A DNA stretch of 64,000 bases. Origin: Microbacterium enclense. Its GTDB lineage: Bacteria; Actinomycetota; Actinomycetes; Actinomycetales; Microbacteriaceae. Positions 2,572-46,702 of the stretch are shown here, piece by piece (positions within the stretch are counted from its first letter, which is position 1; each line of letters begins with the position of its first letter). The notes beneath the pieces were generated by a model that made no database searches, was not told where the DNA came from, and was given only the letters and a program-made list of their open reading frames with translations. Location: positions 62,001 through 126,000 of the forward strand of contig NZ_KQ758468.1 in the NCBI RefSeq assembly GCF_001456955.1. The letters run 5' to 3'. The translations under genes and the position numbers were made by a program.

Positions 2572-2577
2572 TATCGT
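2572..2577 (+). promoter_or_regulatory. -10 box TATCGT of the first three-gene module
   Basis: TATCGT ends six bases before ATG 2584, so the transcript would begin at or next to the start codon with no leader. No good -35 is visible. Confidence 0.5.
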
Positions 2578-2583
2578 CGGCGC

Positions 2584-2922
2584 ATGGCTGAGCGATACGC
2601 GATCGATGTGACCGGCTTCCTCGACCTCGCCGCGCGGACGGCCCAACGTATGGACACGTTGACCGAGGCCGTCTTCGGCGTTCTGTCCGTCGTACGGGAG
2701 ATTCAGGATGCCATGGCGCCGGCACCCGATCTCGCCCGCGCATTCGCCAGAGCGGTCGATTCGTGGGTCGAGCGTGCAACGGCCTTGGCGGAGCACGGGG
2801 GAGCCGTGCTGGCCGCAGCCGAGCGCGCCGTCGCCGAGTACGTCCGCGCCGACGCCGCGATGGCCATCGACACCGAGCGTGCCGCGCAGACGCGGGGCCA
2901 CGGGCGCTGGAGGGTGTCGTGA
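2584..2922 (+). CDS. Small helical protein with YxxxD motif, WXG100/EspC-like (module 1)
   Basis: A 112-residue protein, predicted almost wholly alpha-helical, with no signal peptide or membrane segment. The second helical half ends in EYVRADAAMA, which contains the YxxxD pattern known as the general export signal of type VII (ESX) substrates. The C-terminus ends in GRWRVS. Its paralogue at 46355-46702 has the same length, AYVAADDEMA at the same place and a GRW-containing end. It is the first gene of a module whose members overlap by four bases, and its stop overlaps the GTG of the hydrolase gene. The likely role is partner or secretion chaperone of the hydrolase. No ESX secretion genes are in the window, so export is inferred. 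Confidence 0.6.
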   Translation: MAERYAIDVTGFLDLAARTAQRMDTLTEAVFGVLSVVREIQDAMAPAPDLARAFARAVDSWVERATALAEHGGAVLAAAERAVAEYVRADAAMAIDTERAAQTRGHGRWRVS

Positions 2923-4631
2923 TCGACGCTCGCATCGAGGTGCCCGAGGTTCCTGTCCGTGCCGACGACCTCGACGACGCATCCCATCGCTTACGCGGTC
3001 GGGCGTGGGCTGTCGCGCCCGCGGCCCAGCAGGTCGTCGTGGGCTGGTCAGACCTGCGATCACGGTACGACGCACCAGAGGCGGCGGATCTCGTCGAGCG
3101 GATGGCGATCGTCGAAAAGGGCAGCGCCCAAACGAGTGAGGCGTTCACTCGCGTGGGTGAGGTACTGGACGAACTCATCGACGCGCTGCGCCTGCTCGAG
3201 AAACGCCGGGCGGCCGTCGTCGACGACAGCGAGTCGGCGATGGCCGGCGGAGAGTCCGCGGGCGTCGAGCTGTCGATTGCGCGCCTGCGCGCAGACATCG
3301 CCGAAGTGCTCGACCAGACCTGTCGCGACCTCGGAGGTCTCGCAGCACCGCCACCCCTGCCCCTGGCCGCCGACGGGGGCGCAGTCGTGCCCGTCGGTCC
3401 TCGGGTCACCTGGCAGATGCGAACGGAGCAGGCCGCGAGCGAGGTGCTGCTCGCCCCGCTGGTCGAGGCCGCCCGCGGCGGCGCCGGTCGGGTGAGAGCC
3501 ATCCTCGCCGCGCACCCGGAGTGGGCAGAGCGCATCCGTCAGCGTCCTCCCGCAGCGCGCGCCGTTCGTGACTGGTGGGCCGCCCTTCCTCCGGAGACGC
3601 GGTCCGCCCTGACACACGGCGCCGCCGGCGTGGTCGGCGCTCTCGGGGGCGTGCCGCCTCTCGACCGTGTCGCGGCGAACCGCGTCGTCGCTCAGGATCG
3701 ACTGCCGACCGTCCGCCGAGAGATCGAGCGTCTCGACGCGCTGTTGTCGGAGGGCGCGACGGCCACGTTGCAGGCAGAACGTCGAAGCGCGCTCGACCGC
3801 CTGAACGCCGAACGCGACTACCTTCGACGCGTCGTGGCGGGCGACGTGCAACTCGTGCTGTACCAGCCGGACGAGAACCGCATCGCCGAGATGATCGGCA
3901 CCCCGGGCGCCGACACCCGTCGAGTGCTGACGTACGTGCCGGGGACGTTTACGTCGGTGGAGAGTTTCTACGAGGGCGGAGCGCAGGACCTCGCTCAATG
4001 GCTCTTCACACAAGACCGCGGCACAGTCGCATTCGTATGGAAAGGCGCGGACTTCCCGGGCGACGACGGTGATTCAGGGCCGACTGAGCAGGCGGTCGGA
4101 ATCCTGGAGGCCAATGATCAGCAACGTGCTCGTGACGCCGGTGAGCGCCTCGCACGGTTCGTGCAGGAGATGCGGATCGACCCCCCTATCGCGGCAGCAC
4201 GTCAGATTGCGGGCGGTTACAGCTGGGGCCTCGTGCCAGTCACAAGCTCGGAACTCGCCGGCGCCCACTACGACGCTGTTCATTCATTCGCGGGGGCCTG
4301 GGTGCCGGAGGGATGGGTCGCCAACGGCGTGACGACATACTCCCATTGGAGCTACACCGACTTCCTATCGATGGCGCAGGACGCGGGTTTGGTTGGGAGC
4401 GGCCGCAATCCCGACGTGACGCCCGGATTCGTAAGCCGTATCTACGATCGGCCCGGCGACTATGACGTGCGCCTCGGCAGCGAGCTTGCGCCGTTCCTCG
4501 ATCCGAACGGACCGTCCTTGCGAATCTCAACGACTCCGTTCGAGAATCACCAACTGATCGTGTCCGATCGAGCGGAGAACCGGCTCGCGCTCGACGATAT
4601 CCGCGACGCGGTACTGGAGACGAAGAAGTGA
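2919..4631 (+). CDS. Large alpha/beta hydrolase with helical N-terminus, DUF1023-like (module 1)
   Basis: Predicted 570 residues. Residues 1-210 are helical, with long amphipathic stretches like a WXG/LXG-type domain. The family signature follows at about 210-260 (EWAERIRQ, DWWAALPPE, GGVPPLDRVAANR), then an alpha/beta hydrolase domain with VLTYVPGT, nucleophile motif GGYSWG (Ser435) and a C-terminal His544 in FENHQLIV. No signal peptide is present. GTG 2919 overlaps the previous stop and has GGAGGG just upstream. The substrate is unknown; a lipase or esterase role is a guess. The 3' half is clearly poorer in GC than the 5' half (32 of 60 bases at 4501-4560 against 42 of 60 at 3301-3360). Its paralogue is at 44640-46358. 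Confidence 0.7.
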   Translation: MIDARIEVPEVPVRADDLDDASHRLRGRAWAVAPAAQQVVVGWSDLRSRYDAPEAADLVERMAIVEKGSAQTSEAFTRVGEVLDELIDALRLLEKRRAAVVDDSESAMAGGESAGVELSIARLRADIAEVLDQTCRDLGGLAAPPPLPLAADGGAVVPVGPRVTWQMRTEQAASEVLLAPLVEAARGGAGRVRAILAAHPEWAERIRQRPPAARAVRDWWAALPPETRSALTHGAAGVVGALGGVPPLDRVAANRVVAQDRLPTVRREIERLDALLSEGATATLQAERRSALDRLNAERDYLRRVVAGDVQLVLYQPDENRIAEMIGTPGADTRRVLTYVPGTFTSVESFYEGGAQDLAQWLFTQDRGTVAFVWKGADFPGDDGDSGPTEQAVGILEANDQQRARDAGERLARFVQEMRIDPPIAAARQIAGGYSWGLVPVTSSELAGAHYDAVHSFAGAWVPEGWVANGVTTYSHWSYTDFLSMAQDAGLVGSGRNPDVTPGFVSRIYDRPGDYDVRLGSELAPFLDPNGPSLRISTTPFENHQLIVSDRAENRLALDDIRDAVLETKK

Positions 4632-5119
4632 AAATCGCCCGCATTGGTTTGACCGTCATCCTTCCGCTATCCCTGTCGGGGTGCTTCATTGGCGCGAACA
4701 ACGTCGACGAAGACCTATCGCTGCCGGACGCGAAAGCGCGCACGCAGGCCGTCGAACGTCAGATCGCCGATGCGTTGCCGGGCGACCTCGTCGTTTCAAT
4801 TGATCAGAACGAGACGGGCTCATTTCTCTCGTGCACTAGCGACGGAGGGGAACAGTGGGCCGGCGGTCTCACGGCACGGGTTCAAGCAGGTGCGTCGGCT
4901 GAGCAGCTCCTCGAACCTGTTAGCAAGGAGTTCGAGGCCGAGAAAGACATGTCATCCCAGCGATGGCAGCGTGACGGTGATGACATCGTCGAGATCGTCG
5001 GTCTGCATCAGTCATCGTGGATCGTTCGTTACGCACCCGACCGTGAGGAAGTGCACGTTTCGTCGTTCTCTCCGTGCATTCGTCTGCCCGAGGGCGTATG
5101 GCGCGGCGACACCTACTAG
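4628..5119 (+). CDS. Small lipoprotein, candidate partner or immunity protein (module 1)
   Basis: A 163-residue protein with a short charged start, a hydrophobic core and lipobox LSGC (Cys19), so probably exported and lipid-anchored on the outer face of the membrane. The mature part has two further cysteines (FLSCTSD and FSPCIRL) that could pair. GTG 4628 overlaps the hydrolase stop by four bases. No family is recognised. The overall plan (lipobox, helix, first Cys near the middle, WxVxY-type strand, last Cys near the end) resembles the lipoproteins at 43316 and 44125 beside the second hydrolase. Lower GC than the surroundings (35 of 60 at 4801-4860). Acting as an inhibitor of the hydrolase is a hypothesis from position. 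Confidence 0.6.
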   Translation: MKIARIGLTVILPLSLSGCFIGANNVDEDLSLPDAKARTQAVERQIADALPGDLVVSIDQNETGSFLSCTSDGGEQWAGGLTARVQAGASAEQLLEPVSKEFEAEKDMSSQRWQRDGDDIVEIVGLHQSSWIVRYAPDREEVHVSSFSPCIRLPEGVWRGDTY

Positions 5120-5224
5120 GTATGGAGGTGGACGATCTGTCGCGCGATCTCGACATCGCTGTCCCCCGGGGCTGTGCCCCACCCAGCGCTCCGGTAGGCT
5201 GACCGCACAAGTCCACACCGGCCC

Positions 5225-5425
5225 CATGATCGATGCGGGAGAGCTCCGGCGCACGCAGCCGGGCACCGAAGGAGCAAGCCTCCCCGCCAATCTCTCAGGT
5301 ACGCGTACCGCGTCGATCGGGCCACTCTGGAAAGTGATCCGGGTGCACAGCGCCCGATCCGCCGACGGTGAAAGCCGCGTGAGAACGCGGCGAAACTCTC
5401 AGGCCCATGACAGAGGGGGAGTTCT
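5225..5425 (+). promoter_or_regulatory. Tandem glycine riboswitch upstream of gcvT
   Basis: Two glycine aptamers in series. The first (about 5231-5316) holds CGGGAGAGC, a variable stem, GCACCGAAGGAGCAA and ends in AATCTCTCAGGT. The second (about 5325-5418) holds CTCTGGAAAGTG, CGCCGACGGTGAAAGCC and AAACTCTCAGGCCCATGA. These are the conserved purine-rich and CTCTCAGG blocks of the family. A TAGGCT box at 5195-5200 is a plausible -10. Glycine binding would turn on the cleavage operon. No clear terminator with a T-run follows, so control of translation is as likely as attenuation. This fills the 352-base gap before gcvT. Confidence 0.92.
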
Positions 5426-5471
5426 TCAGGCGTCGACCGGCGTCTGTCCGTCATCGCGAACGGCAGAACTC

Positions 5472-6896
5472 ATGACCGAAACCCCCGCTCCACCGCGCAC
5501 GTCGCCGCTGCACGACAGGCACGAAGCCCTCGGTGCCTCGTTCACCGACTTCGGCGGCTGGAACATGCCCGTGCGCTACACCTCCGACCTCGCCGAGCAC
5601 CGCGCCGTGCGCGAAACCGCCGGCCTGTTCGACATCTCGCACATGGCCGAGTTCGTCGTCGCCGGCCCGCGGGCCGCGGCATTCCTCGACTACGTGCTCG
5701 CCGGCCGCCTGTCGACGATGAAGGTCGGCAAGGCGAAGTACTCGCTCGTGCTGGCGGCGAGCGGCGGCATCGTCGACGACGTCATCGTCTACCGCACGGG
5801 GCCGCAGAGCTTCCTGGTCATCTCGAACGCCGGGAACCGGGATGCCGTGGCGGCGGCGCTCGGCGCGGCGCAGCGCACGTGGGCACCGGCGTCGGACGCT
5901 TCGACAGGCTCAGCGACCGCCGCTTCCGCCGCCGCCGCTTCGACAGGCTCAGCGACCGCCGCTTCCGCCGCCGACGCTTCGACAGGCTCAGCGACCGCCG
6001 CTTCCGCCGCCGCCGCTTCGACAGGCTCAGCGACCGTCGCCTCCTCCGCCGACGCTTCGACAGGCTCAGCGACCTCCGCCCCCGCCACCGCCGCTGCTCA
6101 CGCCACCTCTGCTGACGCCGCGGCCGCGGTCCCTGAGCCCGTCGAAGGGACCTCGCCCCGCTCCTTCGCCGTCGTCGCCGGCTCCACCGGCCTCCGCGTC
6201 GAAGACGTCACCGACTCGTACGCCCTCATCGCCCTGCAGGGGCCTGAGGCCCGCGGCATCCTGGGCTCCATTCCGGGGGTCGAGATCACCGGCACCCCGC
6301 TCGACGAGCTCGGGTACTACGCGTGGACCGAGGGTGTGTTCGAGGGTGCCTCGCTGTTCGTCGCCCGCACCGGGTACACCGGCGAAGACGGCTACGAGCT
6401 GATGATCCCCACCGCGCAGGCCGGCGCCCTGTGGGATGCCGTCCTCGCGAGCGGGAGGGACGCGGGTCTCGTGCCGTGCGGTCTCGCCGCGCGCGACACG
6501 CTGCGCCTCGAGGCCGGGATGCCGCTCTACGGCCACGAGCTCTCGCGTGACATCGTCCCCGCGCAGGCCGGCCTCGGTCGCGTCGTCGCCGTCGACAAGC
6601 CGGCGTTCGTCGGAAAGGACGGCCTCTCGTCCGCACCGGGCGATGCCCCCGTGCTCGTCGGTCTCGTCGCGCAGGGACGCCGCGCCGGCCGCGCCGGCTA
6701 TGCCGTGCTGCACGGCGACGACGTCGTCGGCGGGATCACGAGCGGCGCCCTCAGCCCCACCCTCGGCCACCCTGTCGCGATGGCGTTCGTCGCCCCCGCG
6801 GCATCCGACCCCGGAACCGAACTGACCATCGACGTGCGCGGAACCCGCATTCCCGCGACCGTCACCGCCCTTCCCTTCTACCGGAGAAACGCATGA
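5472..6896 (+). CDS. gcvT: Glycine cleavage system T protein (aminomethyltransferase) with repeat insertion
   Basis: Transfers the one-carbon unit from aminomethyl-lipoyl GcvH to tetrahydrofolate, releasing ammonia. Domain landmarks: [10 protein letters not shown] (about 27-36), FDISHMAE (about 53-60), [18 protein letters not shown] and the C-terminal barrel with [13 protein letters not shown]. The protein has 474 residues, about 100 more than usual. The excess is one block at about 138-230, made of five 13-residue repeats ([13 protein letters not shown] type) and an Ala-rich tail, encoded by a DNA repeat family also found between genes. The frame stays open, so the protein may still work if the block loops out. 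ATG 5472 follows the riboswitch. First gene of gcvTHP. Confidence 0.95.
5898..6092 (+). repeat. Five in-frame 39-base tandem repeats inside gcvT
   Basis: Units start at 5898, 5937, 5976, 6015 and 6054. Each contains CTTCGACAGGCTCAGCGAC followed by an Ala/Ser-coding stretch. The period is exactly 13 codons and the last copy decays. The CTTCGACAGGCTCAG part is the inverse of the core of the palindromic elements at 6128 and 27092-27391. Confidence 0.95.
6128..6152. repeat. 25-base palindromic element inside gcvT
   Basis: Arms GGTCCCT and AGGGACC flank the core GAGCCCGTCGA. The same plan and length as the intergenic copies at 27092-27391, here within coding sequence at the end of the gcvT insertion. 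Confidence 0.9.
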
Positions 6897-7263
6897 CCGA
6901 CCTCACCGCCCTCAGCTACACCTCCGAGCACGAGTGGATCGCCGTCGACGGCGACATCGCCACCGTGGGGATCACCGACTTCGCCGCCGAGAAGCTCGGC
7001 GACGTCGTCTTCGTCGAGCTTCCCGGTGCCGACTCCGCGGTCACCGCGGGCGACGTCTGCGGCGAGATCGAGTCGACGAAGTCGGTCGGTGAGCTGTACG
7101 CCCCGCTCACCGGCACGATCGTCGAGGTCAACGACGCGGTCGTCGACGACCCTTCCCTGGTCAACGCCGAGCCCTTCGCCGGCGGGTGGCTCATCAAGAT
7201 CCGCGTCGAGGGCGACCTGCCCACCGACCTGCTCGACCGTGCCGCATACGAGGACCTCACCGC

Positions 7264-7267
<4 letters not shown>
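6893..7267 (+). CDS. gcvH: Glycine cleavage system H protein
   Basis: Small lipoyl carrier protein that shuttles the aminomethyl group between GcvP, GcvT and dihydrolipoamide dehydrogenase. It has 124 residues, normal for the family, with [10 protein letters not shown] at the N-terminus, [19 protein letters not shown], and the lipoyl-lysine motif [15 protein letters not shown] with Lys63 as the attachment site. ATG 6893 overlaps the gcvT stop by four bases and its own stop overlaps the gcvP start, so the three genes are translationally coupled. No lipoate ligase or lpd gene is in the window. Confidence 0.98.
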
Positions 7268-10143
<2,876 letters not shown>

Positions 10144-43315: not shown

Positions 43316-43828
43316 TCAAACACCTCGTCCGCCGGGCGATCGGCGGGGCTTGTCATCGGTTGGCAGGATGCCACACCGCGAGATCACGATGAGATCGAGC
43401 GCAGGGCGTCCGTCAATCTCAGCCTCGTCCACCGTGACGGACAGCTCGTGTTCATGATTCACGAGATAGACCGAAGCAAAAGGGACCGCGATGCCGAGGT
43501 CCCGCTCTTCCCAGCCGTCGCCGAGGCGACCGGGCAGGTCGGCGATGAAGGTGTCGAAGTCGAATCCGTCGGAAACGTAGACAGCCCATTGACCTGTGTA
43601 GAAAGCGCCCCCGCGCCTCGAAGAAAGCAGGGGATCGGAACAGGAATAGGGTTCGTCGTCCGGTTCGGGCGAGACCTCGTGCGGAGGCGGAACGAGCGCC
43701 GCGATCTCATCGAGAGCGGCGACGGCCTCAGCCCTGACCGTATCGTAGGAAGGTTGATTCAGCGCGCAGCCTCCCGTCGTCAACGGGATAAGCACTAGTG
43801 CTATCGCCTGCAGGAACCTTGCTGTCAC
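43316..43828 (-). CDS. Small lipoprotein, duplicate of the module 2 lipoprotein
   Basis: A 170-residue protein with signal sequence and lipobox TTGGC (Cys21). Mature part YDTVRAEAVAALDEIAALVP, a first Cys in PYSCSDPL, the block FYTGQWAVYVSDGFDFDTFI, VYLVNHEHELSVTVDEAEID and a last Cys in VISRCG. These blocks line up with the lipoprotein at 44125 (FFTGQWAVFVSDDFDIRGFI, VSRCG). GTG 43828 has GGGAGG before it. It is convergent with the small hydrolase (six bases between stops) and no longer next to an effector gene, as orphan immunity genes often are. Confidence 0.65.
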   Translation of the reverse strand: MTARFLQAIALVLIPLTTGGCALNQPSYDTVRAEAVAALDEIAALVPPPHEVSPEPDDEPYSCSDPLLSSRRGGAFYTGQWAVYVSDGFDFDTFIADLPGRLGDGWEERDLGIAVPFASVYLVNHEHELSVTVDEAEIDGRPALDLIVISRCGILPTDDKPRRSPGGRGV

Positions 43829-43860
43829 TTGCCGCCCTCCCTTAGGAGCTCTCGAACCCG

Positions 43861-44073
43861 GTCGGGGCCGCGACTGTTCGTCGAGGGGGGAATGACCCGT
43901 TCGTCAATGTTCGTAGGCAATTCGACGAGGCGGTGGTGTCGCGTCAGGACGCCCGGGTGCATTGGGTCGCCAGCGGTAATCATTCGTTCGAGGTGAAGGG
44001 CGCGCGGCGGCCGGCGGAGGAGATTGGTGCGGGGTTGGCGGGCGTGGTGGCGGCGTTTGCGCGCGGGGTGTGA
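43861..44073 (+). pseudogene. Broken 3' duplicate of the small hydrolase gene
   Basis: Closely matches the end of the 42641 gene: LFVEG, then NDPF, QFDE, QDARVHWVA and NHSFEVKGARRP, to the same stop. A one-base deletion after GAGGGGGG (about 43885) shifts the frame and the first two thirds of the gene are missing, so it cannot work. It lies between two lipoprotein paralogues and marks a tandem duplication of hydrolase end plus lipoprotein. About 50 further bases to 44124 show nothing. Confidence 0.9.
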
Positions 44074-44124
44074 GAACCGGGTAGTGCTGTCGGTGGCGGC
44101 TGCTGAGAGCCGCAACGCGTCGCT

Positions 44125-44643
44125 TCACGGGGTCGGATGCGGGATCGGCGGCGGGAATGTCGCGTCCCGCTCTTCATCAGTGATCTTGCCGCAACGGGAT
44201 ACGGCGAGGAGATCGATGGCTTTCCGTCCATCGATCGTCGCTTCCTCGACCTTCAGCGTCATCCTTGGTGACTCACGCACGAGGTAGACCTCGGCGAAGC
44301 TGACGGGTACCCCAAGTTCCTCGACCCGCCACTCAGCGCCCAGCCGTTGCGGCACGTCGTCGATGAAGCCTCGAATGTCGAAGTCGTCGCTCACGAAGAC
44401 GGCCCATTGCCCCGTGAAAAACGCGCCGTGTCCTTTTTGCAGCGCCAGACCGTCGTCACACGAATATGGTTCGAACTCGGGGGTCACCAACACCGCTTGC
44501 CTGCTGGGCACGAAATCTGCCACGTTCTGCAGAACATCGAGCGTCTCCGCTCGTACTTCCGCGTACGTCGGCAGGTTGGGTGAGCAGCCGACGAGCATCG
44601 CGGCAGTTAGACAGAGACTCGCTACAAGTACGCCGACTCTCAT
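44125..44643 (-). CDS. Small lipoprotein, candidate partner or immunity protein (module 2)
   Basis: A 172-residue protein with lipobox LVGC (Cys20), probably anchored outside the membrane. Mature part TYAEVRAETLDVLQNVADFV, a Cys in PYSCDDGL, FFTGQWAVFVSDDFD and a Cys in AVSRCG; the Pro-rich end is variable. ATG 44643 overlaps the hydrolase stop by four bases, as in module 1. No known family. GC is low at its boundary with the hydrolase gene (25 of 60 bases at 44641-44700). The proposed job, holding the hydrolase in check or presenting it, is inferred. Confidence 0.65.
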   Translation of the reverse strand: MRVGVLVASLCLTAAMLVGCSPNLPTYAEVRAETLDVLQNVADFVPSRQAVLVTPEFEPYSCDDGLALQKGHGAFFTGQWAVFVSDDFDIRGFIDDVPQRLGAEWRVEELGVPVSFAEVYLVRESPRMTLKVEEATIDGRKAIDLLAVSRCGKITDEERDATFPPPIPHPTP

Positions 44644-46358
44644 TCTTCTGCCCTCGACTCATTCAGAATTTGATTAACCGTATTCAAGACCGTTCCATTC
44701 ACTTCTTCGTCATCGCTCATCAACCTGTTGTGGTGATCGACGCTTGCGGCGATTACGAAGGGCGCGCCAAGGGCGACGTTCAACGGATCGACACCTGGTA
44801 GTCCCGAAGCGACGATGTTGACGTCGCTTATCGACTCAGGTCGGGTACCGAAGCCGAATGGCCCCAGCTGCAGACCGGCGTAGTACCGATTGATGTCATC
44901 CGGGCCCTGAGCTGAGAAGTAAGCCGTATCCGCCGAGGGTGTGTAATCGTCTGCGGCTCCGACGGATGCGGCAAGGAAGCGGGCATTCACCGTCCCGCCA
45001 TATGCTTCCGCCGCGCTGCCCACACCACCTCCGTATGAGTGTTCATAGCTCATCGTCCACAAGGAGGGATCCGCCGCCTGCACACCTTTCACGAATTGGG
45101 CGTACTCGGGTGCGCGGTCCTCGGCGTAGTGGTTCCACTGCGGACCACCCCCGGAAAGAATTTCATCGAGTTGCGGCATCGGGCCGGTCATCACAGTGAA
45201 GGCGACGACACTCTCACGGCCACCCCGTACCTGCCAATTCGCGAACCGTGTAATCGGTTCCTCGACGTAGAAAGAGTCGGCCGTCGTGTTCGTGCCCGGC
45301 ACGACGAACAGCGCGGCCTTTGCCGTAGACGGGTCGCCCGACATCTCGATGAGGGAACCGTGGCTGGGATCCCACGCGTAGAGCAGCTTTCGTCCCGCGG
45401 CCACCGCCTGGAAGTATGCGATCTCGCGGTCTATCCGGTTCACGTTCGCGGACGGCACGACACGCGCCCGAGGTGCGCCGGCAGGACCGTGGAGACCGAG
45501 GGCGCGGTCGCGCTTCGCACGGAGGTCGGCCAGATGACCCGCCGCGCGAGCGCGGTTGGCGGCGACGCGGTCGGCGAGAGCGACGCCGTCGAGATTGCCG
45601 ATGAGGGCGGGAACGCCCGCAACGAGTGCGGCGGCGGTGGTCGGGGACAGGCTCGCCCACCACGTCGCCACCGCGTCGGGCTGGCCGCGCCGGATGATGT
45701 CGGCCCACTGGGGGTTCTGGCGCAGCAGGCGCGCCGCATCCGCACCGTCTCGTCGAGCGAGTCGGTGGAGCAGGGGGAGAGCTGCTTCATCGAGGACGGA
45801 CGTCGACGGGTTGGCGAGTACGGTCTCCTCGGCGGGGAGATCGCGAGCGAGTGTCCACGAGACGTCGGGGATCGCGCGGAGCGCCGCGGCGCACGCGCGA
45901 GCTGCGGCATCCCAGTCCTCGACGAGCGCGGCATACTCTCGACGGAACGCGAGCTCGCGGTCGCCGCGCTCGACATCGGCGAGACGGCGGCCAAGAGGGT
46001 CGCTTGCTTCGGGGAAGGCGAGGCTGGCGGTGGCCTCGTGCTCGCGAAGTCGTGCGATCAGGGCGTCACGTCGACGATCAGCTGCCTCGAGATCGTCAGC
46101 CAGGGTCTCGATCGCTGCACGGGCGTTGCGCAGGCCTGCATCGATCTCGGCGGAGGCAGGGCCGAGCTGGCGCAGGCTCTGTTGCAACTCGGAAGCCTCA
46201 GGGGCGTGGTAGACGCCGGGCAGCAATCCCCACGTGAAGAGCACGTGATCGGTTGCCAGACGCGTGGCAGAACTCGCGGTCTCGAGGGACGCCGCGAGTC
46301 GGCGGAGCTCTTCGGGGTCGGCCGGGCACGGAGGGATGTCGCTGAGTGAGAGAGTCAT
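44640..46358 (-). CDS. Large alpha/beta hydrolase with helical N-terminus, DUF1023-like (module 2)
   Basis: A 572-residue paralogue of the 2919 product. Helical region to about 200, signature QWADIIRR, WWASLSPTTAAALVAG, GNLDGVALADRVAANR, then the hydrolase domain with LFVVPGTNTTADSFY, nucleophile motif YEHSYGGG (Ser441) and His542/543 in ASVDHHNRLM. No signal peptide. ATG 46358 is chosen as it overlaps the previous stop (ATGA); a GTG three codons upstream is possible. GC is 44 of 60 at 45481-45540 but 25 of 60 at the 3' end. Substrate unknown. Confidence 0.75.
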   Translation of the reverse strand: MTLSLSDIPPCPADPEELRRLAASLETASSATRLATDHVLFTWGLLPGVYHAPEASELQQSLRQLGPASAEIDAGLRNARAAIETLADDLEAADRRRDALIARLREHEATASLAFPEASDPLGRRLADVERGDRELAFRREYAALVEDWDAAARACAAALRAIPDVSWTLARDLPAEETVLANPSTSVLDEAALPLLHRLARRDGADAARLLRQNPQWADIIRRGQPDAVATWWASLSPTTAAALVAGVPALIGNLDGVALADRVAANRARAAGHLADLRAKRDRALGLHGPAGAPRARVVPSANVNRIDREIAYFQAVAAGRKLLYAWDPSHGSLIEMSGDPSTAKAALFVVPGTNTTADSFYVEEPITRFANWQVRGGRESVVAFTVMTGPMPQLDEILSGGGPQWNHYAEDRAPEYAQFVKGVQAADPSLWTMSYEHSYGGGVGSAAEAYGGTVNARFLAASVGAADDYTPSADTAYFSAQGPDDINRYYAGLQLGPFGFGTRPESISDVNIVASGLPGVDPLNVALGAPFVIAASVDHHNRLMSDDEEVNGTVLNTVNQILNESRAEE

Positions 46359-46702
46359 AGGGGCCACCGACCGAATCGTGACGGGTCGAACAGCGCGGCG
46401 TCTGCACCGGACCGGGTCGTCGTGGCCGCCATCTCGTCGTCGGCTGCCACGTAGGCGATGACGACCGCCCGGAGGGCCGCAAGCGCCGATCGGCCTCGCG
46501 ACGCGATGCCCCGCGACAGGTCGACCCGGGCGCGGGCGACGTCGTCGAACGCCGCGCGCGCGGACGGCAGCCCGGACAGTGCGTCGGTCAGCGCGTCGAC
46601 CGCTTCGCGCAGCGCCGCCGAACGATCCAGGGTGTCGTCGAGGGCGAGACGGACACGTTCGGCGATGCCGACAACCTCATCGGGCTGGACGGAAAACGAC
46701 AT
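46355..46702 (-). CDS. Small helical protein with YxxxD motif, WXG100/EspC-like (module 2)
   Basis: A 115-residue helical protein without signal or membrane segment. AYVAADDEMA near residue 85 contains the YxxxD pattern of type VII export signals. It ends in SRFGRWPL. Paralogue of the 2584 product by length, motif position and gene order. ATG 46702 has a TAGCAT box six bases upstream. First gene of module 2; its stop overlaps the hydrolase start. Likely pairs with the helical N-terminus of the hydrolase, which is inferred. Confidence 0.6.
   Translation of the reverse strand: MSFSVQPDEVVGIAERVRLALDDTLDRSAALREAVDALTDALSGLPSARAAFDDVARARVDLSRGIASRGRSALAALRAVVIAYVAADDEMAATTTRSGADAALFDPSRFGRWPL

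What the first reader, a model, noticed from the sequence alone, without database searches (positions are those of the whole stretch)
2584..5119. Three-gene overlapping module: YxxxD small protein, DUF1023-like hydrolase and lipoprotein
Seen: three genes overlap by four bases each, under one leaderless promoter. The small protein carries YVRAD (YxxxD), the known type VII export signal, in its last helix. The hydrolase has a helical first third and a Ser435/His544 hydrolase domain. The last gene encodes a lipoprotein with two extra cysteines. Known: effectors of ESX/T7SS have WXG or LXG helical partners and, when toxic, an adjacent immunity gene. Inference: an exported hydrolase effector with helper and inner- or outer-face inhibitor. 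I do not know of a described system of exactly this kind.
Basis: partly seen in the sequence, partly recalled or inferred. Interest (0 to 1): 0.72.

Follow-up and report, generated by a model that had tools for sequence, protein, structure and literature searches.

The report
Exported hydrolase toxin with lipoprotein guard
Three overlapping genes in a Microbacterium-like bacterium are predicted to make an enzyme that likely leaves the cell by type VII secretion to harm rival bacteria, its small export partner, and a surface lipoprotein that would protect the producer; the trio recurs in related genomes, and an equivalent trio in a mycobacterium-like genus holds the LppA lipoproteins, whose role is unsettled in the papers we saw.

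Summary
The triplet is real: small partner (112 aa, DUF6507), alpha/beta-hydrolase (570 aa, Ser435/Asp481/His544) and lipoprotein (163 aa), joined by GTGA overlaps. The genome holds two more copies, one in this window on the other strand (43316-46702), with two and three lipoproteins. Of 45 hydrolases sampled in the genus, 36 have a small gene before them and 35 a lipoprotein as next gene (background 2 of 274). The small protein covaries with the helical half and the lipoprotein with the catalytic half, hardly crosswise. Strong relatives occur with EccC (37 of 38 genomes; others 145 of 261); a few relatives lie beside EccC and WXG100 genes. Near-identical N-terminal halves carry diverged catalytic ends. 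Best reading: an ESX-exported polymorphic hydrolase toxin with a surface-lipoprotein immunity protein. It works like staphylococcal TslA/TilA and mycobacterial prophage PEST cassettes, but differs in domain order or in being chromosomal: a new variant of a known kind. Boldest extension: 54 of 60 LppA lipoproteins in a mycobacterium-like genus sit just behind such hydrolases. Export, toxicity and inhibition are untested.

The parts
2572..2577 (+). TANNNT (-10-like) box 6 bases before the first ATG; possible leaderless start
   Evidence: Sequence; TA..GT kept in 6 of 6 syntenic loci; consensus scan found 0 promoter-like sites
2584..2922 (+). small partner gene, 112 aa, DUF6507 (PF20117)
   Evidence: Pfam E 1.4e-5, 26.1 bits against cut-off 25; a small gene lies upstream in 36 of 45 sampled hydrolase loci
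2839..2853 (+). YVRAD, residues 86-90, YxxxD/E export-type motif
   Evidence: YxxxD/E in the second half of 24 of 37 upstream small genes, 3.4 expected after shuffling (one of the 37, at L048, is really a lipoprotein gene)
2919..4631 (+). hydrolase gene, 570 aa
   Evidence: model with mean pLDDT 85.5
2919..3842 (+). helical N-terminal region, residues 1-308, with W43 (WSD)
   Evidence: Helices in the model; W43 in 90% or more of A1; covaries with the small protein
3843..4628 (+). alpha/beta-hydrolase domain, residues 309-570
4221..4223 (+). codon of Ser435 (putative nucleophile, GYSWG)
   Evidence: Invariant in the 33 sequences of A1 and the 40 of A3
4359..4361 (+). codon of Asp481 (putative catalytic acid)
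   Evidence: Invariant in A1 and A3; falls near the invariant Asp455 of the PF06259 set
4548..4550 (+). codon of His544 (putative catalytic His)
   Evidence: Invariant in A1; 90% or more in A3
4628..5119 (+). lipoprotein gene, 163 aa, lipobox LSGC, Cys19/69/150; putative immunity protein
   Evidence: 35 of 45 sampled loci have a lipoprotein as next gene, background 2 of 274
46355..46702 (-). second module: small partner, 115 aa, YVAAD at 84
   Evidence: DUF6507 E 4.5e-5, 24.4 bits, just under the cut-off of 25
44640..46358 (-). second module: hydrolase, 572 aa from the ATG that gives a 4-base overlap (the longest frame starts at 46367)
   Evidence: 30% identity to the first over its residues 7-374
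44125..44643 (-). second module: lipoprotein, 172 aa, ATGA overlap with the hydrolase
43316..43828 (-). second module: tandem paralogous lipoprotein, 170 aa, 43% identical to the one before it

Best explanation
The three genes, which overlap by four bases each and recur as a unit in related genomes, likely form a polymorphic toxin cassette: the small helical protein and the helical N-terminal half of the hydrolase would together make the export signal for the ESX-type type VII secretion system, the C-terminal alpha/beta-hydrolase is predicted to cut ester bonds in the envelope of neighbouring bacteria, and the surface lipoprotein is predicted to bind and block that domain on the producer's own membrane. 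Shown here: gene order, overlaps, motifs, recurrence, tandem lipoproteins, covariation by halves, the sharp identity boundary between close relatives, co-occurrence with EccC, and gene linkage with EccC and WXG100 in some relatives. Inferred: export by T7SS, an ester (perhaps lipid) as substrate, toxicity, inhibition by the lipoprotein, rival bacteria as target.
For: Recurrence: small gene before 36 of 45 and lipoprotein as next gene after 35 of 45 sampled hydrolases, background 2 of 274 other genes (p 3e-35). Two or more lipoproteins in 14 of 45 by recount. Covariation: lipoprotein with catalytic domain given the N-terminal half, partial r 0.59, p 0.0005; small protein with N-terminal half given the catalytic domain 0.62, p 0.0005; crosswise 0.16 (p 0.018) and 0.00 (p 0.45) (30 loci); after thinning to 16 dissimilar loci 0.56 and 0.48, crosswise 0.07 and -0.09. 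P0001 against P0002 and P0003: 97-100% in each 30-residue block to residue 330, then 57-83%, last block 47 and 37%. Pieces of the hydrolase 3' end repeated between extra lipoprotein genes in L054 and L055. Related hydrolase domains on other N-terminal domains: PF21725 T7SS_signal in P0050, WXG100 in P0062 (26.7 bits, just under its cut-off), and what reads by eye as a Sec signal peptide in L059 and L061, still followed by a lipoprotein. T7SS link; own genome has EccC over its cut-off and an EccD beside it (Pfam over cut-off; NCBIfam under). In the two nearest syntenic genomes the lipoprotein is 56-61% identical, MarP 92% and GcvH 92-93%.
Against: No export, toxicity or binding data. 10 of 45 hydrolases lack a called lipoprotein as next gene and 9 of 45 lack the small gene. 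13 of 37 upstream small genes lack YxxxD/E. None of the three modules in this genome lies at its EccC locus. Weak DUF1023-like hits are only slightly tied to EccC (84 of 136 against 61 of 125, p 0.046), and the cut that defines 'strong' (E below 1e-37) was chosen after seeing the list. One strong genome, G340 (86% complete), has no EccC hit. In six genomes the first module sits stably between marP and gcvT, which would also fit a resident function.
Confidence: 0.62

Rival explanations
1. An exported resident envelope enzyme: the hydrolase remodels the cell's own envelope esters, and the lipoprotein is its membrane tether, folding helper or regulator rather than an immunity protein.
For: Stable position of the first module between marP and gcvT in six genomes; esterase-like fold with common cellular relatives; the lipoprotein tracks the catalytic domain, as a dedicated helper would.
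Against: Patchy presence (32 of 119 genus genomes at E 1e-3 with one query); two or more lipoproteins at 14 of 45 loci; repeated hydrolase 3' ends between lipoprotein genes; sharp identity boundary at residue 330.
Confidence: 0.2
2. A T7SS effector aimed at eukaryotic hosts or grazers, with the lipoprotein only preventing self-damage.
For: ESX substrates of pathogenic mycobacteria act on hosts (established knowledge, recalled); LppA has been discussed as a possible antigen (PMC4770551, passages seen).
Against: The named relatives of the hydrolase are mostly Microbacterium; lipoprotein copy number and divergence look like kin-protection repertoires (compare PMC9484751, abstract seen).
Confidence: 0.1
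3. Coincidental neighbours: three unrelated genes kept together by their position, with no joint function.
For: No joint function of these three proteins was found in print in our searches.
Against: Three modules in one genome at separate places; recurrence at many loci with different flanks; overlaps of four bases.
Confidence: 0.03

Closest known systems
TslA / TilA / TlaA1-TlaA2, Staphylococcus aureus T7SSb lipase toxin (PMC10730906; abstract and two Results sections read)
   Same: Lipase toxin, small helical partners needed for export, lipoprotein that binds and inhibits it, tandem and variable lipoprotein copies, several loci per genome, polymorphic catalytic domain.
   Different: There the catalytic domain is N-terminal and the helical domain C-terminal; two partners are encoded downstream; TilA is DUF576 and encoded upstream; T7SSb of Bacillota. 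Here the order is partner, helical-then-hydrolase, lipoprotein, in a genome with EccC/EccD; the window's lipoprotein matches no Pfam family.
PEST cassettes, phage-encoded ESX-secreted toxins of mycobacterial prophages (PMC10654092, PMC8092301; passages seen)
   Same: Small WXG100 partner, toxin with WXG-type N-terminus and variable C-terminus, immunity gene; immunity goes with the toxin domain; several immunity proteins are predicted lipoproteins (PMC8092301).
   Different: Those are in prophages next to attachment junctions; hydrolase, lipase, lipoprotein and LppA have 0 occurrences in the main text of PMC10654092. Here the cassette is chromosomal; tblastn found no relative of the hydrolase in the phage or plasmid collections.
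LppA family (PF16708), mycobacterial lipoproteins, PDB 2v7s
   Different: No Pfam hit for the window's lipoprotein; the rmsd is large; related at most remotely.
Abhydrolase_8 / DUF1023 (PF06259) and the T7SS_signal domain (PF21725)
   Same: Fold and order of catalytic residues; some relatives with PF21725 carry the source name 'putative T7SS-secreted protein'.
   Different: The window's hydrolase does not reach the Pfam model.
DUF4853 (PF16145), PDB 4mjg, Actinomyces
   Different: No function known to us; gene context not tested (0 hits in 148 genomes, which the tool says does not show absence).

Membership tests
T7SS (ESX) substrate with helical partner | Helical N-terminal domain with WxG-type turn | tested here: inconclusive
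   Helices 15-44 and 53-108 with W43 in WSD; W-x-G itself within the first 130 residues in only about 10 of 37 relatives; no Pfam WXG100 hit; weak PDB sequence matches to EsxA (2vrz E 0.017, profile positions 11-93) rank below designed coiled coils and ATP synthase b.
T7SS (ESX) substrate with helical partner | YxxxD/E motif in substrate or partner | tested here: met
   YVRAD 86-90; 24 of 37 upstream small genes, 3.4 expected.
T7SS (ESX) substrate with helical partner | Genome encodes the secretion ATPase EccC | tested here: met
   676.7 bits over cut-off 509.15 at C3:10873; EccD beside it (Pfam 59.1 bits over 30; NCBIfam 72.9 under 94.95).
T7SS (ESX) substrate with helical partner | EccC-dependent secretion | not testable with these tools
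   Needs an experiment.
Abhydrolase_8 / DUF1023 (PF06259) | Reaches the Pfam model by sequence | tested here: not met
   0 families at E up to 1.
Abhydrolase_8 / DUF1023 (PF06259) | Profile similarity and fold | tested here: met
   hhalign 99.9, E 1.5e-35, 366 columns; fold. Filed as remote relative, not member.
TslA/TilA | Reverse domain order (catalytic domain first) | tested here: not met
   Helical residues 1-308, hydrolase 309-570.
TslA/TilA | Lipoprotein that inhibits the lipase | not testable with these tools
   Lipoprotein present; inhibition needs an experiment.
PEST cassette | Three-gene order partner, toxin, immunity | tested here: met
   that the third gene gives immunity is inference.
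PEST cassette | Encoded by a prophage near an attachment site | tested here: not met
   Flanked by marP and a glycine riboswitch plus gcvTHP; no phage match by tblastn.
PEST cassette | Partner is WXG100 by Pfam | tested here: not met
   DUF6507 instead.
LppA (PF16708) | Reaches the Pfam model | tested here: not met
   0 families.
LppA (PF16708) | Fold | tested here: inconclusive
DUF6507 (PF20117) | Over the gathering score | tested here: met
   26.1 against 25, narrowly; the second module's partner is just under, 24.4.

The most novel reading that the evidence does not exclude
An actinobacteria-wide class of ESX-exported hydrolase toxins is guarded by surface lipoproteins, and the mycobacterial LppA-family lipoproteins, discussed so far as antigens, are its immunity proteins: their tandem copies, recombination and positive selection are the marks of kin protection, as was the case for the staphylococcal DUF576 lipoproteins.
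Probability: 0.45. Interest if true: 0.85.

Novelty: new variant of a known kind. Interest (0 to 1): 0.64.

Why it matters
In the papers seen here, antibacterial T7SS toxins are described for Bacillota (T7SSb) and, for the actinobacterial T7SSa, as cassettes of mycobacterial prophages. A chromosomal, widespread hydrolase-lipoprotein pair would give other actinobacteria such a weapon and give jobs to families without one: DUF6507, LppA and, less surely, DUF4853 (fold match only). The LppA link would turn a puzzle, why mycobacterial lppA/lppB are recombination and selection hotspots (PMC4770551, PMC11056549; passages seen), into a testable question.

Tried and rejected
Housekeeping reading by position alone: the first module is syntenic in six genomes, but the other copies are elsewhere and patchy, so position was not taken as function. 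Plain DUF1023 co-occurrence with EccC: weak hits show little tie, so the claim rests on strong relatives, gene linkage and covariation. The cut (E below 1e-37) was made after seeing the list; without it the figure is 121 of 174 against 61 of 125 (p 3e-4). Searches scored only 4 and 3 candidates a genome, so some matches may be missed.

My own counts that did not hold: the script gave 37 of 45 with a small gene, but one (before the short second hydrolase of L048) is the preceding lipoprotein gene, so 36; it gave 16 of 45 with two or more lipoproteins, but two of these (the window's first module, L075) counted lipoproteins beyond the module; the recount is 14, and the window's second module, whose second lipoprotein failed the strict test, would be a fifteenth. 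The 37 rows include the L048 row. I first took the short hydrolase pieces of L054 and L055 for stand-alone toxin cassettes; one search shows repeats of the hydrolase 3' end joined to or overlapping lipoprotein genes (in L055 the frame starts as a lipoprotein), so remnants of tandem duplication is the plainer reading.

DUF4853 context: 0 hits in 148 genomes, no proof of absence. Phage and plasmid origin: no tblastn match; PHROGs gave one weak match of unknown function for the small protein (E 0.0038). Sequence search of PDB with the lipoprotein profile gave 7 hits, most of them WD-40 or propeller chains over profile positions 105-147 (best 2ymu, E 8e-16, no stretch passing on its own), taken as a repeat artefact. 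No TilA or DUF576 chain is among the fold rows shown; that excludes nothing. Gene calls come from a simple codon-usage caller of my own, so starts and short genes may be wrong. The 40 regions, with the window and L005, cover 50 of the 57 match rows; 7 rows, mostly short or weak, were left out. For one search I used 49 of the PF06259 rows listed; the six unmatched LppA copies were checked by eye against the rest of that list. Partial Mantel tests can be over-optimistic. M. tuberculosis gene neighbourhoods (recalled: a DUF1023 gene before lppA/lppB and before lppJ) were not looked up. Papers: none held both DUF1023 and type VII; Abhydrolase_8 had 0 occurrences in the 20 papers listed; none of the 3 papers listed held 'immunity protein'. 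Other paper searches.
Full report
Observation. The upstream neighbour is a MarP-family protease. Downstream, 5226-5423 holds two glycine riboswitch aptamers before gcvT, so the module is bounded by unrelated units. A TANNNT box 6 bases before the ATG is kept as TA..GT in 6 of 6 syntenic loci, which fits a leaderless start but does not show it; the consensus scan found none.

Copies. The own genome has three modules: the one given; a second in this window on the minus strand (small 46355-46702, hydrolase 44640-46358, lipoproteins 44125-44643 and 43316-43828); a third on contig C10 with three tandem lipoproteins. Within the second and third modules the lipoproteins are 43-45% identical to one another. 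The nearest named relatives of the hydrolase are Microbacterium proteins.

Recurrence. One query finds relatives in 32 of 119 genus genomes at E 1e-3. I took 40 regions plus the window and L005, covering 50 of the 57 match rows, called genes with a simple caller of my own and found 49 profile matches, of which 45 were used after dropping four short pieces beside another match. A small same-strand gene within 150 bases upstream: 37 by the script, 36 after removing the L048 row, which is a lipoprotein gene. A lipoprotein as next gene: 35, or 37 with profile matches lacking a called lipobox. Among 274 other genes in the same regions 2 pass the lipoprotein test. The ten misses are L047 and L049 (profile match only), L062, L064 and L069 (a gene of lipoprotein size that fails the test), pieces in L048, L052 and L067, and L058 and L072, long hydrolases with no called same-strand gene behind them. 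Two or more lipoproteins follow 14 of 45 (the first script said 16).

Two halves. YxxxD/E lies in the second half of 24 of 37 upstream small genes, 3.4 expected after shuffling. On 30 complete loci the small protein tracks the helical half of the hydrolase (partial r 0.62) and the lipoprotein the catalytic half (0.59), both p 0.0005 by permutation, while the crosswise terms are 0.00 (p 0.45) and 0.16 (p 0.018). Thinned to 16 dissimilar loci the values are 0.48, 0.56, -0.09 and 0.07. Partial Mantel tests can be over-optimistic; the crosswise terms are the internal control. This is what a targeting pair plus a toxin-immunity pair predicts.

Polymorphism. Against P0002 and P0003 every 30-residue block to residue 330 is 97-100% identical, then blocks are 57-83%, and the last 47 and 37%. 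The lipoprotein with the locus tag next to P0002's (P0077) is 53% identical to the window's. In the two nearest syntenic genomes MarP is 92%, GcvH 92-93%, GcvT 84%, the small protein 74-78%, hydrolase regions 55-72% and lipoprotein 56-61%. In L054 two 68-residue frames, and in L055 part of a 176-residue frame, repeat the 3' end of the hydrolase among extra lipoprotein genes; the L055 frame begins as a lipoprotein. They lack the serine region, so they look like remnants of tandem duplication of a hydrolase-end-plus-lipoprotein unit.

T7SS link. Own genome: EccC over the cut-off with EccD beside it. Of 299 family genomes, 38 have a strong hydrolase hit (E below 1e-37) and 37 of these have EccC (E up to 1e-60), against 145 of the other 261, p 5e-8. 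Related genomes are not independent points, and the cut was chosen after seeing the list. L085 shows EccC, WXG100, small gene and an Abhydrolase_8 hydrolase in a row (its hydrolase is among the weak hits); L079 has EccC, WXG100, small gene and hydrolase; L080 has a hydrolase about 3.6 kb from EccC with a weak EccD match (E 0.015, under cut-off) between; L081 and L083 have WXG100, small gene, hydrolase and lipoprotein. A relative carries PF21725 T7SS_signal (P0050; precomputed for others). L059 and L061 carry a related hydrolase domain behind what reads by eye as a Sec signal peptide, again followed by a lipoprotein, which suggests that the enzyme acts outside the cytoplasm.

LppA. Searching 148 genomes of the class for PF16708 gave one over the cut-off, G493, with seven copies at three loci. 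At each of these loci the copies follow an Abhydrolase_8 hydrolase; the small genes checked are WXG100 over the cut-off in L104, under it in L105, and DUF2563 in L106. In 78 genomes of that genus, 60 LppA hits lie in 36 genomes, and 54 have a PF06259 hit 0-3 kb upstream on the same strand; of the six misses, G564 has one on the same strand on the other side. Of five aligned LppA copies all have one further cysteine besides the lipobox one, four a C-terminal one, three of them in C-x-LP; the window's lipoprotein ends in CIRLP. In M. tuberculosis lppA and lppB are reported as recombination hotspots under positive selection and as possible antigens (PMC4770551, PMC11056549; passages seen), and a gene-conversion table lists them (PMC13061034, one passage seen).

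Known kinds. TslA/TilA (PMC10730906, abstract and two sections read) is described to work the way proposed here, with the reverse domain order. PEST cassettes (PMC10654092 and PMC8092301, passages seen) have the same parts, in prophages. Polymorphic alpha/beta-hydrolase toxin domains were proposed in PMC3482391 (passages seen). So the kind is known; the chromosomal hydrolase-lipoprotein version in actinobacteria, and LppA as an immunity protein, were not found in print in our searches.

Noticed in passing
window 43316-46702 (-): Second complete module with two tandem lipoproteins, not mentioned in the finding.
   Followed up: yes
L005 (G000:C10), 4024-7935 (-): Third module with three tandem lipoproteins.
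   Followed up: yes
window 5226-5423: Two glycine riboswitch aptamers (RF00504, 68.1 and 47.4 bits) ahead of gcvT.
   Followed up: yes
window 5897-6095: 39-base repeat, 5.1 copies, inside the gcvT frame; GcvT is 474 aa here and 388-428 aa in L039-L042 by my gene calls.
   Followed up: partly
L104, L105, L106 (G493): LppA lipoproteins behind Abhydrolase_8 hydrolases with WXG100-like or DUF2563 small genes.
   Followed up: partly
L059, L061: Related hydrolase domain behind what reads as a Sec signal peptide instead of the helical domain, followed by a lipoprotein.
   Followed up: partly
L045 5160-5447, L068 5918-6211, L070 3337-3621: A further small gene (94-97 aa) downstream of the lipoprotein; perhaps a second partner.
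   Followed up: no
L071, L073, L074, L075, L076, L077: A divergent hydrolase-lipoprotein version sits next to genes that look by eye like tilS, hpt and ftsH.
   Followed up: no
L054 5133-6047, L055 5014-5544: Repeated hydrolase 3' ends joined to or overlapping lipoprotein genes, apparently remnants of tandem duplication.
   Followed up: partly
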